In this document: positions 2,387-35,322 of the stretch, piece after piece | Layout: every line of letters starts with the position of its first letter | Numbering within the stretch: position 1 is the stretch's first letter | Source of the DNA: Bacillota bacterium | GTDB lineage: Bacteria > Bacillota > GCA-003054495 > Carboxydocellales > JAJZSN01 | Direction: 5' to 3' | DNA length: 35,578 nt | Assembly (NCBI GenBank): GCA_021849745.1 | Contig: JAJZSN010000022.1 | Span: 1 to 35,578 of the forward strand | Translations under genes and position numbers: made by a program | The notes under the pieces: generated by a model | Database searches by the model: none | What the model was told of the DNA's origin: nothing | The model's input: the letters and a program-made list of their open reading frames with translations, nothing else

Positions 2387-2473
2387 TAGCTGGTAGCTTG
2401 TAGCTTGTAGTTTTCAGGACATTCTAATATGCCTGTGAGAGCTACAAGCTATGAGCTACGAGCTATCAGCTAA
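2387..2473. repeat. AGCT heptad element between mbl and flhO
   Basis: The left arm 2387-2410 is a run of TAGCTGG/TAGCTTG units. The right arm 2440-2472 is the inverted CTACAAG/CTATGAG/CTACGAG/CTATCAG series. The ~30-nt core (TTCAGGACATTCTAATATG) is shortened compared with other copies. The TAG stop of mbl (2470-2472) lies inside the right arm. The arms can pair into a long hairpin in the mRNA. Confidence 0.85.
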
Positions 2474-7021: not shown

Positions 7022-7185
7022 CTGGTTTTTAAAAGCTTATCCACGGAGAGCACGGAGGTTTATGGGTTGCTACATTTAGGGGTTTTATACTTTTGGGGTT
7101 TATTGGTACATAAAATATTAAATAAATCTTTTTTCTCCGTGGCCTCCGTGGCCTCTGTGGTTGCCTTTTATAGTTATTTTCTCCC
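7022..7185. repeat. CTCCGTG nonamer element, copy A
   Basis: Left arm CCACGGAGAGCACGGAGG (7041-7058); ~75-nt core containing TTTATGGGTTGCT and GGTTTATTGGTACATAAAAT; right arm CTCCGTGGCCTCCGTGGCC (7134 on) of 9-nt units, ending in GGTTGCCTTTTATA. The arms are inverted and can pair. Core and flanks are nearly identical to copy B at 7762-7978. It lies directly downstream of the GxxExxY gene. Confidence 0.85.
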
Positions 7186-7191
7186 TAGGGT

Positions 7192-7593
7192 TTAGAGGTT
7201 ACCACACACTATACGTTTAATTCCGTCTTTAAGTCTTGGTACACTGAAATTAATTATTAGTCCTAAGCTCAATTTGGACAGGTTTAAATAATTTATTACC
7301 TGGGCTTCATGAATTGGTAAAATTGAGCTAACGGTTTTCAATTCTACTAATACTTTTTCCTGTACAACTAAATCAGCTCGAAAGCCGTAGTCGAACTGTT
7401 TGTCCTTATATGTAATTGGTATGAACTTTTGCCTTTTGAAATCTATCTTTTGTAATTCTAGTTCATAACATAAGCATTTTTCATAAACACTTTCAAACAA
7501 CCCTGGCCCCATAGATTTATGTACTTCAATAGCCGCCCTAATTATTTTTTCTGAGATTTGGTTAATCTCCTTTGAGGAGTCGATATTTGACAA
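7192..7593 (-). CDS. GxxExxY family protein (PD-(D/E)XK-like fold)
   Basis: This 133-residue protein carries the family signature GLFESVYEKCL at about residues 31-41, preceded by IRAAIEVHKSMGPG. Further on, FRADLVVQEKVLVELKTV (around 72-89) has the D-x(n)-E-L-K spacing of PD-(D/E)XK nuclease-like domains, to which the family has been assigned. Its biochemical function is not known; nuclease activity is only a fold-based possibility. It occurs sporadically in bacteria. Here it is bracketed by ~58-nt direct repeats (7128-7185 and 7613-7671), interrupting the conserved spoIID-spoIIID neighbourhood, so lateral acquisition is likely. The start is a TTG, with GGATG-type weak ribosome site; an alternative start is possible. 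Confidence 0.88.
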   Translation of the reverse strand: MSNIDSSKEINQISEKIIRAAIEVHKSMGPGLFESVYEKCLCYELELQKIDFKRQKFIPITYKDKQFDYGFRADLVVQEKVLVELKTVSSILPIHEAQVINYLNLSKLSLGLIINFSVPRLKDGIKRIVCGNL

Positions 7594-7612
7594 AATTACA
7601 TCATCCTTTTTT

Positions 7613-7671
7613 ATTTTTTCTCTGTGGTTCTCCGTGGTCTCCGTGGTTGCCTTTTATATTTATTCCCCCTT
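7613..7671. repeat. Right-arm half copy of the nonamer element, upstream of the GxxExxY gene
   Basis: A run of CTCTGTGGTT/CTCCGTGGT units ends in GGTTGCCTTTTATATTTATT, closely matching 7128-7185 on the other side of the gene. Thus the GxxExxY gene lies between two direct repeats of about 58 nt. This half copy has no left arm or core. Confidence 0.8.
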
Positions 7672-7761
7672 AATTTCCATTTACTATATATTACCATATG
7701 GTTGGCGGGAAATTCAAACTGGGTAACTAATTAATATTTTCCTGCCTCCGGGTGACTTTAT

Positions 7762-7978
7762 TTGGTTTTTTAAAAGCTTATCCACGGAGCGCACGGAGAG
7801 TACGGAGGTTTATGGGTTGCTGTATTTAGGGGTTTTATGTTTATGGGTTTATTGGTACATAAAATTTTAAATAAATCTTTTTTCTCCGTGTCCTCCGTGT
7901 CCTCCGTGTCCTCCGTGGTTGCCTTTATTAATTTTCTTTTCGTGTTCTCTGTGTCCCCGTGGTTGCTTTTTATATTTA
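7762..7978. repeat. CTCCGTG nonamer element, copy B, with extra arm
   Basis: Second full copy. It starts with GGTTTTTTAAAAGCTTATCCACGGAG, continues with the same core as copy A, then a longer right arm with four CTCCGTGTC/CTCCGTGGT units and a degenerate further arm (CTCTGTGTCCCCGTGGTTGC) to about 7965. Together with 7594-7761 (half copy plus about 90 nt of AT-rich unique sequence) it fills the 420-nt gap between the GxxExxY gene and the small membrane protein gene; no other gene is seen there. Confidence 0.85.
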
Positions 7979-13352: not shown

Positions 13353-13469
13353 TAGCTGGTAGCCGGTAGCTGGTAGCTGGTAGCCTGCAAGTCATGCTCC
13401 GAGGTAATATTTAGACCCTTAAGAATATCTTTCAAGGCTATAAGCTACAAGCTACGAGCTATAAACTAC
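13353..13469. repeat. AGCT heptad element between atpG and atpD, inverted orientation
   Basis: Left arm TAGCTGG/TAGCCGG units at 13353-13385; right arm CTATAAG/CTACAAG/CTACGAG at 13437-13469. The core reads AAGAATATCTTTCAAGG on the plus strand, whereas other copies carry CTTGAAAGATATTCTTA on the plus strand, so this copy is inverted relative to the genes. The atpG stop TAG (13466-13468) lies at its edge. Confidence 0.85.
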
Positions 13470-14330: not shown

Positions 14331-14350
14331 TAGCTATTAGCTATTAGCTA
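14331..14350. repeat. Short heptad run (half element) between atpA and atpG
   Basis: Three TAGCTAT units directly follow the atpA stop. Only one arm is present, without a core. It precedes the AAGGTGGTGAG ribosome site of atpG. Confidence 0.7.
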
Positions 14351-20003: not shown

Positions 20004-20120
20004 TAGCTTATAGCTTGTAGCTTGTAGCTTGTAGCTTGAAAGATATTCTTACAGGCTTTTAAATGACCCTAAAGGCCTGACATGTAAGGCTATAAGCTAC
20101 AAGCTACCAGCTACCAGCTA
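20004..20120. repeat. AGCT heptad element between mazG-like gene and wecB (type example)
   Basis: Left arm 20004-20038 is TAGCTTA/TAGCTTG repeated five times. The core is GAAAGATATTCTTACAGG, then an AT-rich stretch and GACATGTAAGG. The right arm, 20086-20120, is CTATAAG/CTACAAG/CTACCAG units. The arms are mutually complementary. The final codons AGC TGG TAG (Ser-Trp-stop) of the upstream MazG-like gene are read from the right arm. Confidence 0.9.
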
Positions 20121-20453: not shown

Positions 20454-20564
20454 GGCTATTAGCTTGTAGCTTGTAGCTTGTAGCTTGAAAGATATTCTTA
20501 TAGGTTTTAAAGACCATAAAGGTCAACATGCAAGGCTACCAGCTACCAGCTATTAGCTATCAGC
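20454..20564. repeat. AGCT heptad element between comEB and the mazG-like gene
   Basis: Left arm TAGCTTG four times (20459-20486), core GAAAGATATTCTTATAGG ... CAACATGCAAGG, right arm CTACCAG/CTACCAG/CTATTAG/CTATCAG (20536-20564). The core closely matches the copies at 20004 and 29527. The TAA stop (20553-20555) and last residues Asp-Ser of comEB are inside the right arm. Confidence 0.9.
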
Positions 20565-21002: not shown

Positions 21003-21022
21003 GGTTTGAGCCTTCCTCTCTG

Positions 21023-21053
21023 TAGCTGGTAGCTCGTAGCTGGTAGCTTGTAG
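21023..21053. repeat. Left arm of a split AGCT heptad element, 3' of the four-helix-bundle gene
   Basis: Four units, TAGCTGG TAGCTCG TAGCTGG TAGCTTG, stand where a core would normally begin. Instead of the core the next sequence is the four-helix-bundle gene (21060-21410), and the matching right arm is at 21426-21458. Confidence 0.85.
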
Positions 21054-21059
21054 AAAAAT

Positions 21060-21410
21060 CTATTTTAATGAGTTGATTAATGCATGTAAGAGCTTCATTA
21101 CTTCTTCTGACTTTATAAGTAGTTCCTGATGTTGTTTTTCCTTGAGAAACCCTAAATCTTTGGCAAGAGTTAAGTAATAATGGCTTTCATATGCTGATCC
21201 TCTTGCAATAAATAGGAATTGGATAAACTCCTTTTTATGTTGCCTGGAATGACCTTCTGCAATATTTGCTGGTATTGAAGTAGTAGCACGCCTAAGTTGA
21301 GAAGTAAGTCCAAAGACTTCTTCTCGAGGAAAATACTTTGAAATCTCATATACTTTTAACACAAATTCATGGGCTTTCTGCCAGGCAATCAATTGTTCAT
21401 ATCTGGCCAA
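21060..21410 (-). CDS. Four-helix-bundle protein (23S rRNA intervening-sequence family)
   Basis: This 116-residue protein belongs by sequence to the S23/IVS-encoded family, small helical proteins first seen in intervening sequences of 23S rRNA genes. Landmarks are LIAWQKAHEFVLKVYEISKYFP at the start, FGLTSQLRRATTSIPANIAEG (about 32-52) and the terminal helices. Its function is unknown. It interrupts the comEB-upp neighbourhood and sits exactly between the left arm (21023-21053) and right arm (21426-21458) of a heptad repeat, in place of the usual ~60-nt core. TTG start with GGGGG 8 nt upstream. Confidence 0.93.
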   Translation of the reverse strand: MARYEQLIAWQKAHEFVLKVYEISKYFPREEVFGLTSQLRRATTSIPANIAEGHSRQHKKEFIQFLFIARGSAYESHYYLTLAKDLGFLKEKQHQELLIKSEEVMKLLHALINSLK

Positions 21411-21425
21411 AATTATCGCCCCCTA

Positions 21426-21455
21426 GGCTACAAGCTACAAGCTATCAGCTATCAG

Positions 21456-21458
<3 letters not shown>
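21426..21458. repeat. Right arm of the split AGCT heptad element, 5' of the four-helix-bundle gene
   Basis: CTACAAG CTACAAG CTATCAG CTATCAG units, the inverted complement of 21023-21053. The upp stop TAG (21456-21458) is the last heptad. Confidence 0.85.
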
Positions 21459-22097
<639 letters not shown>

Positions 22098-23372: not shown

Positions 23373-23524
23373 TTAGCTTGTAGCCGTTATTTTGCTTGTA
23401 GCTTGTAGCTGGTAGCTTGTAGCCAATTAGGTATTCTTACAAGTTTTTAAGAACCCGTAAGTATGACATCCAAGCTACAAGCTATCAGCTACCAGCTATC
23501 AGCTACAAGCTACCAGCTACCGAC
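23373..23524. repeat. AGCT heptad element between rpiB and glyA (longest copy)
   Basis: Left arm 23373-23424 of TAGCTTG/TAGCTGG units with an insertion (GCCGTTATTT), core with GTATTCTTACAAG and TATGACATCCAAG, right arm 23471-23524 of seven CTACAAG/CTATCAG/CTACCAG units. The rpiB stop TAG (23517-23519) and its last codons are within the right arm. Confidence 0.88.
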
Positions 23525-24567: not shown

Positions 24568-24586
24568 AGCTACAAGCTATAAGCTA
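24568..24586. repeat. Short heptad run at the 3' end of mntP
   Basis: AGCTACAAGCTATAAGCTA, two and a half units of a right arm with no core or partner. It encodes the last residues and TAG of mntP and lies against the ywlE ribosome site. Confidence 0.7.
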
Positions 24587-29526: not shown

Positions 29527-29650
29527 ATAGCTGATAGCTCGTAGCTGGTAGCTGGTAGCTTCAAAGATATTCTTACAGGTCTTTTTATTACCCCAAAGGA
29601 TAACATGCGAGCTACCAGCTACAAGCTATCAGCTATCAGCTATCAGCTAC
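29527..29650. repeat. AGCT heptad element between the radical SAM gene and rpmE
   Basis: Left arm TAGCTGA/TAGCTCG/TAGCTGG/TAGCTGG/TAGCTTC (29527-29561), core AAAGATATTCTTACAGG ... TAACATGCGAG, right arm CTACCAG/CTACAAG/CTATCAG units (29611-29650). The stop TAG (29647-29649) of the radical SAM gene lies in the right arm. Confidence 0.9.
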
Positions 29651-35195: not shown

Positions 35196-35236
35196 AACTA
35201 CGAACTATGAACTACGAACTACGAACCATGAACTAC
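35196..35236. repeat. CTACGAA heptads
   Basis: Tandem heptads CTACGAA CTATGAA CTACGAA CTACGAA CCATGAA CTAC between the large inverted repeat and fsa. Confidence 0.7.
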
Positions 35237-35248
35237 CCACCCATCACC

Positions 35249-35288
35249 CACCCTAACCCCTAACCCCTAAAACCTTACCCCTGACCTC
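35249..35288. repeat. CCCCTAA telomere-like repeat
   Basis: CACCCTAACCCCTAACCCCT and the following AAAACCTTACCCCTGACC are related to 1487-1561. The minus strand reads GGTCAGGGGTAAGGTTTTAG, then GGGGTTA repeats. Confidence 0.65.
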
Positions 35289-35322
35289 AGCTACAAGCTA
35301 TCAGCTATCAGCTACCAGCTAC
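35289..35322. repeat. Right arm of an AGCT heptad element at the 3' end of fsa
   Basis: AGCTACAAGCTATCAGCTAT and further CTACCAG units, with no core or left arm. The fsa stop TAG (35319-35321) is inside. Confidence 0.8.

What the first reader, a model, noticed from the sequence alone, without database searches (positions are those of the whole stretch)
20004..20120. A family of heptad-armed intergenic elements with a conserved core
Ten loci in 35 kb carry tandem 7-nt units (TAGCTKG on one side, CTAYNAG on the other); five of them also share a core of ~55-60 nt with CTTGAAAGATATTCTTA ... ACATG-AAGG. Full examples: 20004-20120, 20454-20564, 23373-23524, 29527-29650, and 13353-13469 (inverted). 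Shortened or single-arm forms are at 2387, 14331, 21023/21426, 24568 and 35289. A conserved core with variable numbers of arm units suggests a dispersed element that copies as a unit while the arms expand by slippage. I know of no formal description.
Basis: partly seen in the sequence, partly recalled or inferred. Interest (0 to 1): 0.78.

Follow-up and report, generated by a model that had tools for sequence, protein, structure and literature searches.

The report
Seven-letter-armed hairpins linked to rRNA inserts
This bacterium's genome carries hundreds of short tandem 7-letter arrays between its genes, about fifty of them paired into hairpins around a shared core; they look like gene-less relatives of the hairpin insertions ("intervening sequences") known from bacterial ribosomal RNA genes, which would give a known but unexplained class of bacterial repeats a plausible source.

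Summary
The window lies in a 3.1-Mb Bacillota draft genome with about 50 core-bearing copies and hundreds of heptad arrays (464 TAGYTNN triplets against 1 in the control). Each full copy is an imperfect palindrome: inverted TAGCTNN arms around a degenerate palindromic core. Copies fill spacers between co-directional genes, and the arm often supplies the upstream gene's stop codon.

[quoted passage not shown] four-helix bundle, Avd-like). In 69 IVP loci from 46 Bacillota genomes, 7-nt arrays flank the gene (30/69 loci, against 4/133 control windows). They also flank most of 12 sampled plasmid IVP loci and classical IVSs inside 23S rRNA. In the three unit flavours tested, the genomes richest in dispersed arrays are those whose IVP arms have that flavour; 20 IVP-less genomes have none of the two flavours checked.

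Best reading: intervening-sequence-like mobile hairpins, the small copies being non-autonomous derivatives. The movement mechanism and IVP's role are inferred. Heptameric repeats and rRNA IVSs are each known; I found no report linking them.

The parts
20004..20120 (+). Full IVP-less element: 5 TAGCTNN units, palindromic core, right arm of NNAGCTA units; between a mazG-like gene (stop TAG in arm) and wecB
   Evidence: RNA fold z = -6.1
20454..20564 (+). Full IVP-less element between a comEB-like deaminase gene (stop in arm) and the mazG-like gene; the copy most similar to 20004
23373..23524 (+). Full IVP-less element between rpiB (stop TAG in arm) and glyA
29527..29650 (+). Full IVP-less element; stop codon of the upstream radical-SAM gene lies in the arm
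   Evidence: fold z = -8.0
13353..13469 (-). Full IVP-less element (inverted) between atpG (stop TAG in arm) and atpD of the ATP synthase operon
2387..2472 (+). Short-core two-armed element; supplies the stop codon of the mreB-like gene
21022..21053 (.). Heptad arm at the downstream side of the IVP gene
21060..21410 (-). IVP gene, 116 aa: 23S rRNA-intervening-sequence protein / four-helix bundle protein, weakly Avd-like; the only copy detected in this (86% complete) genome
   Evidence: PF05635 E=5.5e-41, TIGR02436 E=6e-40 and Avd model 3e-7, below its cut-off, PDB 2gsc E=1.5e-20, single copy
21433..21459 (.). Heptad arm at the upstream side of the IVP gene; reaches the stop codon of upp
14331..14350 (.). 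Single array between atpA and atpG
24568..24586 (.). Single array; encodes the last residues and stop of the Mntp-family gene
35288..35322 (.). Single array with the stop codon of a transaldolase-like gene
35196..35236 (.). Array of the second flavour (AACTACG = TAGTTCR) near the 35288 array

Best explanation
These are intervening-sequence (IVS)-type mobile hairpin elements. The complete member is [tandem-heptad arm] - IVP gene - [inverted tandem-heptad arm]. One such element (21022-21459) sits between upp and comEB; the full heptad-armed copies without a gene are non-autonomous relatives that keep the arms and a small palindromic core. When transcribed inside an operon the arms pair into a long stem. 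By analogy with 23S rRNA IVSs that stem can be cut by RNase III, so an insertion in a spacer separates, rather than destroys, the flanking coding regions. IVP (a four-helix-bundle protein, pentameric in the solved Xanthomonas homologue and related to the DGR accessory protein Avd) most likely recognises the arm or stem and takes part in copying. Shown here: the anatomy, the dispersal, the association of IVP with 7-nt arms, the shared unit flavour within a genome, and arm pairing in folds. Inferred: RNase III cleavage in mRNA, IVP as mobility factor, any reverse-transcription step, and descent of the small copies from an IVP-bearing one.
For: Around 69 IVP loci (46 Bacillota genomes) arrays of period 7, and hardly any of other periods, lie within 130 bp of the ORF (either side 30/69; control windows 4/133; Fisher on windows p = 6e-10); the signal peaks at 0-50 bp and is near zero beyond 250 bp. 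Upstream and downstream flanks are inverted matches of each other (mean score 17.9 against 8.8 between genomes; 35/69 above the 99th percentile). Of 14 IVP loci recognised as lying in 23S rRNA, 13 score at least 21, so the arms come with the element. Most of 12 sampled plasmid IVP loci from Cyanobacteria, Azospirillum (23S), Riemerella and Gemmatirosa also have 7-nt arrays, some inside operons (cas10-cmr3, cas6-cas4, nrdB-nrdA). Flavour match: TAGCT in G000, AGTGG in G161 (76+85), AGGAG in G097/G279/G013 (43+111, 21+26, 14+1); the 20 IVP-less genomes checked have 0 for AGTGG and AGGAG. TAGYT arrays and IVP are associated across 399 genomes (21/39 against 51/360, p = 8e-8). Small inverted-arm elements recur in G161 and G279. 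Copies on the same contig, chiefly the one with the IVP gene, are more alike than copies on different contigs (permutation p < 2e-4). RNA folds z = -4.1 to -8.0; the arms close the IVP element. In another Clostridia genome (L086) comEB, mazG and wecB abut or overlap, and in a Desulfosporosinus MAG (L071) upp and comEB are about 9 bp apart. The Coxiella IVS has a heptameric array and is excised by RNase III (PMC4990558).
Against: Over half of the IVP loci show no clear 7-nt array by the strict measure, and some (e.g. L262, L263, L294, L301) show no arms at all. The small copies' core does not visibly derive from the IVP element's non-coding ends. G000 has other heptad flavours (TAGTTCR, GCTGAYA) with no cognate IVP gene. 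IVP similarity does not predict arm similarity once 23S sites are removed, except among close homologues (rho 0.056, p 0.10). The two variable letters of the units do not covary across the stem. No empty site in a close strain and no target duplication could be shown. Some genomes with arrays lack IVP (e.g. G151, G061).
Confidence: 0.62

Rival explanations
1. The heptads are simple-sequence repeats made by polymerase slippage and tolerated only outside genes; no mobile element is involved.
For: 7-nt is the commonest long SSR class in many bacteria (cited in PMC4679880, PMC4692102); arm lengths vary independently; many arrays in G000 have no core.
Against: About 50 loci share a core that slippage cannot spread; arms are inverted and matched in flavour in 56/56 elements; arrays cluster at IVP genes and their flavour follows the genome's IVP arms.
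Confidence: 0.12
2. IVP elements are passengers that insert into pre-existing heptad hairpins, or both are attracted to the same sites; another factor spreads the heptads.
For: One IVP gene against about 50 core-bearing copies in G000; heptad-rich genomes without IVP exist; no protein-unit code across distant IVPs.
Against: IVP insertions in 23S rRNA carry inverted arms although the rRNA has no such arrays of its own; close IVPs in different families and phyla share arm flavour, e.g. G279 and cyanobacterial plasmids.
Confidence: 0.18
3. The small copies are ordinary MITEs of a DDE transposon (e.g. IS630/Tc1-like, TA target) or a REPIN-like system with a RAYT transposase.
For: Palindromic, intergenic, dispersed; ends TAG...CTA compatible with a TA target.
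Against: No Y1 transposase (PF01797) in the genome; arms are variable tandem arrays rather than fixed terminal repeats. DDE transposases were not searched.
Confidence: 0.1
4. The elements are kept as RNA processing or stability signals in operons (for example between atpG and atpD), regardless of origin.
For: 57 of the 63 array-bearing junctions are co-directional; strong folds.
Against: No compensatory change at the variable positions; unrelated gene functions; the per-junction rate in co-directional gaps (16%) is only modestly above convergent (12%) and divergent (6%) ones.
Confidence: 0.12

Closest known systems
Intervening sequences (IVS) of bacterial 23S rRNA with IVP/S23p ORF (Coxiella, Leptospira; PMC4990558)
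   Same: Same protein family, same layout (arm - ORF - inverted arm), long stem; heptameric array before the ORF in Coxiella; 14 IVP loci in the present set lie in 23S rRNA and 13 of them have inverted arms.
   Different: Here the IVP element lies between protein genes (upp-comEB), and dozens of IVP-less core-bearing relatives are dispersed in operon spacers.
Heptameric intergenic repeats: GGGAATC of Xanthomonas and GGGGAYT of Nostoc (PMC4692102); TAACTGA of Beggiatoaceae (PMC4679880)
   Same: 7-nt units, intergenic, near or overlapping stop codons; about 70 inverted pairs in each of two Xanthomonas genomes. A Xanthomonas IVP (XCC0516, PDB 2gsc) is homologous to the window's.
   Different: Unit sequence; a conserved palindromic core; no IVP link is made in either paper (terms tried gave no hit).
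REPIN / RAYT system (PMC3116915)
   Same: One chromosomal gene flanked by the repeat and many dispersed gene-less palindromic copies.
   Different: No RAYT; the associated gene is IVP; arms are tandem arrays.
Foldback elements of eukaryotes (from memory)
   Same: Inverted terminal repeats made of short tandem repeats.
   Different: Far smaller, bacterial; no homology tested.
DGR accessory protein Avd
   Same: IVP scores weakly against the Avd model (3.4e-7, below the curated cut-off) and bAvd.
   Different: No DGR was looked for; a role in reverse transcription is only an analogy.

Membership tests
23S rRNA-type intervening sequence (IVS) | IVP/S23p open reading frame inside the element | tested here: met
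   21060-21410, PF05635 E=5.5e-41; met for the 21022-21459 element only, the small copies lack it
23S rRNA-type intervening sequence (IVS) | Inverted flanking repeats that close a stem around the insert | tested here: met
23S rRNA-type intervening sequence (IVS) | Located in an rRNA gene | tested here: not met
   G000's IVP element lies between upp and comEB; other IVP loci with the same architecture do lie in 23S. So it works like an IVS but is not filed as a 23S IVS
23S rRNA-type intervening sequence (IVS) | Excision from the transcript by RNase III without ligation | not testable with these tools
   needs RNA data
Intergenic heptameric repeat (Xanthomonas/Nostoc/Beggiatoa type) | Tandem 7-nt units, intergenic, in many copies | tested here: met
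REPIN/RAYT | Y1 (REP-associated) tyrosine transposase in the genome | tested here: not met
   PF01797: 0 matches; rings in 5 of 14 control genomes
IS-derived MITE | Transposon with the same terminal repeats in the genome; target site duplication | not tested
   no DDE transposase search was run; element ends are ambiguous because units repeat
Known structured RNA (Rfam) | Match above gathering score | tested here: not met
   0 matches in the window

The most novel reading that the evidence does not exclude
Tandem-heptad-armed hairpins and IVP form one previously unrecognised class of bacterial mobile element. rRNA intervening sequences are its rRNA-inserted members, and its gene-less copies are the source of most heptameric intergenic repeats in bacteria, copied through an RNase III-released RNA with IVP as an Avd-like helper.
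Probability: 0.3. Interest if true: 0.92.

Novelty: new variant of a known kind. Interest (0 to 1): 0.78.

Why it matters
Two old puzzles have stayed apart: where rRNA intervening sequences come from and what their protein does, and why so many bacterial genomes carry intergenic 7-nt arrays, often at stop codons. A shared element would explain both and offers a candidate heptad-binding protein that can be tested in a laboratory host. It would also warn against guilt-by-association readings of IVP genes found inside other operons, such as the cas loci seen here, where IVP looks like an insertion rather than a component.

Tried and rejected
(1) RAYT/REPIN: no Y1 transposase. (2) Rfam: nothing. 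(3) Compensatory change of the two variable letters of opposite units, as expected if the stem itself were selected or repaired letter by letter: within-element identity 0.42, shuffled 0.47; rejected. (4) A recognition code linking IVP sequence to unit sequence: an apparent Mantel signal (p = 0.004) was mostly conserved 23S flanks; without them rho = 0.056, p = 0.10. (5) Same class or order: only three other genomes are held, none with TAGYT arrays, so no close empty sites could be tested. (6) My first inverted-arm statistic mis-oriented minus-strand loci and was discarded. (7) IVP in phages and viral contigs: two weak phage hits and none.

Full report
1. What is there. The five full copies are real and align over arms and core. 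The window is contig C33 of a 3.11-Mb Bacillota draft genome (86% complete). In it the triplet TAGYTNN occurs 215+249 times against 0+1 for the reversed pattern and AGCTNNNx3 486 times against 0. A covariance model from 25 copies finds about 50 core-bearing loci. Anatomy: TAGCTNN units (NN mostly TG, GG, TA, GA), a core that is itself a worn palindrome (half-consensus about TAGCTTGAAnGnnATTCTTAAGGGT), then inverted units. Arms match in flavour within an element (46 TAGCT/TAGCT, 10 TAGTT/TAGTT, no mixed ones among 56).

2. Where it sits. In a 435-kb sample, 98 arrays were found and one lies well inside a called gene, although about 88% of the sequence is coding. Arrays occupy 16% of co-directional, 12% of convergent and 6% of divergent junctions; occupied co-directional gaps have a median of 165 bp against 42 bp. 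28 arrays touch a stop codon, 22 of them TAG. In the window the elements lie in operon-like spacers (atpG-atpD, rpiB-glyA, upp-comEB-mazG-wecB). Upp ends at its normal last residue, and the next three letters are the TAG of the first unit. In another Clostridia genome (L086) comEB-mazG and mazG-wecB abut or overlap; in a Desulfosporosinus MAG (L071) upp-comEB is about 9 bp. These look like insertions into closed junctions, though the relatives are too distant for a strict empty-site proof. Gene calls here are my own simple ORF calls.

3. The key. It is the only IVP gene found in the genome. The arms close the whole element in the predicted RNA fold.

4. Is the link general? 72 of 399 Bacillota genomes have IVP. 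I took 70 loci; 69 could be scored. Lag-7 arrays lie within 130 bp of the ORF on one or both sides in 30/69, and in 4/133 control windows from the same loci. Among lags 3-15, only 7 and its multiple 14 show this excess; the other lags give 0-3 of 69. By distance, the signal is 15/70 and 14/70 in the first 50 bp on either side and 0-2 per bin beyond 250 bp. Upstream and downstream flanks are inverted matches of each other far above between-genome pairs. Fourteen loci carry 23S rRNA motifs in their flanks; 13 of these have inverted-arm scores of at least 21 (part of that score can come from the rRNA helix the insert sits in). Most of 12 plasmid IVP loci from Cyanobacteria, Azospirillum, Riemerella and Gemmatirosa show 7-nt arrays by eye, often inside operons; one (L323) does not, and in two (L325, L331) the arrays are not clearly inverted. 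The link is strong but not universal: several IVP genes have no arms.

5. Cognate flavour. The window's IVP arms are TAGCTNN, as are the core-bearing copies. G161's IVP arms are AGTGGAG and it has 76+85 AGTGG triplets; the next genome has 14. The AGGAG flavour is richest in G097 and G279, whose IVP arms are AGGAG[TA]C; G013, with the same arms, has 14+1, and family-f97 genomes with related AGAAGTC-type arms have some. The 20 IVP-less genomes checked have none of either. Small gene-less inverted-arm elements occur in G161 and G279 too. In the phylum sample, TAGYT arrays and IVP co-occur (21/39 against 51/360, p = 8e-8); related genomes are not independent, so the p-value is indicative only.

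6. How it probably works. Shown: anatomy, dispersal, intergenic placement, IVP association, strong folds (z -4.1 to -8.0), and greater likeness among copies on the same contig, chiefly the IVP contig. Inferred: the stem is an RNase III substrate in mRNA, as shown for the Coxiella rRNA IVS (PMC4990558); IVP recognises the arms and helps copying, perhaps with a host reverse transcriptase by analogy with Avd; units expand and contract by slippage. Against: no letter-by-letter covariation of opposite units, no IVP-unit code beyond close homologues, no visible descent of the core from the IVP element.

7. Known or new. Heptameric intergenic repeats (PMC4692102, PMC4679880) and rRNA IVSs with IVP (PMC4990558) are known separately, and the Coxiella IVS paper even notes its heptamer array. 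In ten full-text searches of the open-access library I found no paper joining them, nor IVP elements outside rRNA with gene-less relatives; subscription papers are not covered. I therefore call it a new variant of a known kind, with a plausible but unproven larger reading.

Noticed in passing
window 7037-7935: A GxxExxY (PF13366, PD-(D/E)XK) gene at 7192-7593 is bounded by 9-nt arrays (CTCCGTGGC / CCACGGAG), with two near-identical gene-less mini-elements at about 7037-7180 and 7778-7935. Plasmid GxxExxY genes also sit inside operons (e.g. fabD-fabG) and two or three of four looked at have inverted 9-nt-like arms (CACAGAG...CTCTGTG). This looks like a sister architecture with another protein and unit length.
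   Followed up: partly
G000 sample, e.g. L177:5787-5936, L179:3867-3988, L181:15573-15646: Other heptad flavours in the same genome: TAGTTCR arrays and GCTGAYA arrays, often paired in fixed order (TAGTTCR, 28-90 bp spacer, GCTGAYA) without the core. No cognate IVP gene was found.
   Followed up: partly
L321, L325, L327 (cyanobacterial plasmids): IVP genes with short tandem arrays lie inside CRISPR-Cas loci (cas10-cmr3, cas6-cas4 twice); IVP is named among CRISPR-linked domains in PMC10910872, which may partly reflect such insertions.
   Followed up: no
L277, L289, L292 (G017, G045, G095): Closely related IVP genes in three families with 11-nt rather than 7-nt arms, so unit length is not always seven.
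   Followed up: no
L264 (G097:C4): A 55-unit, 384-bp heptad array beside one IVP gene, an extreme arm expansion.
   Followed up: no
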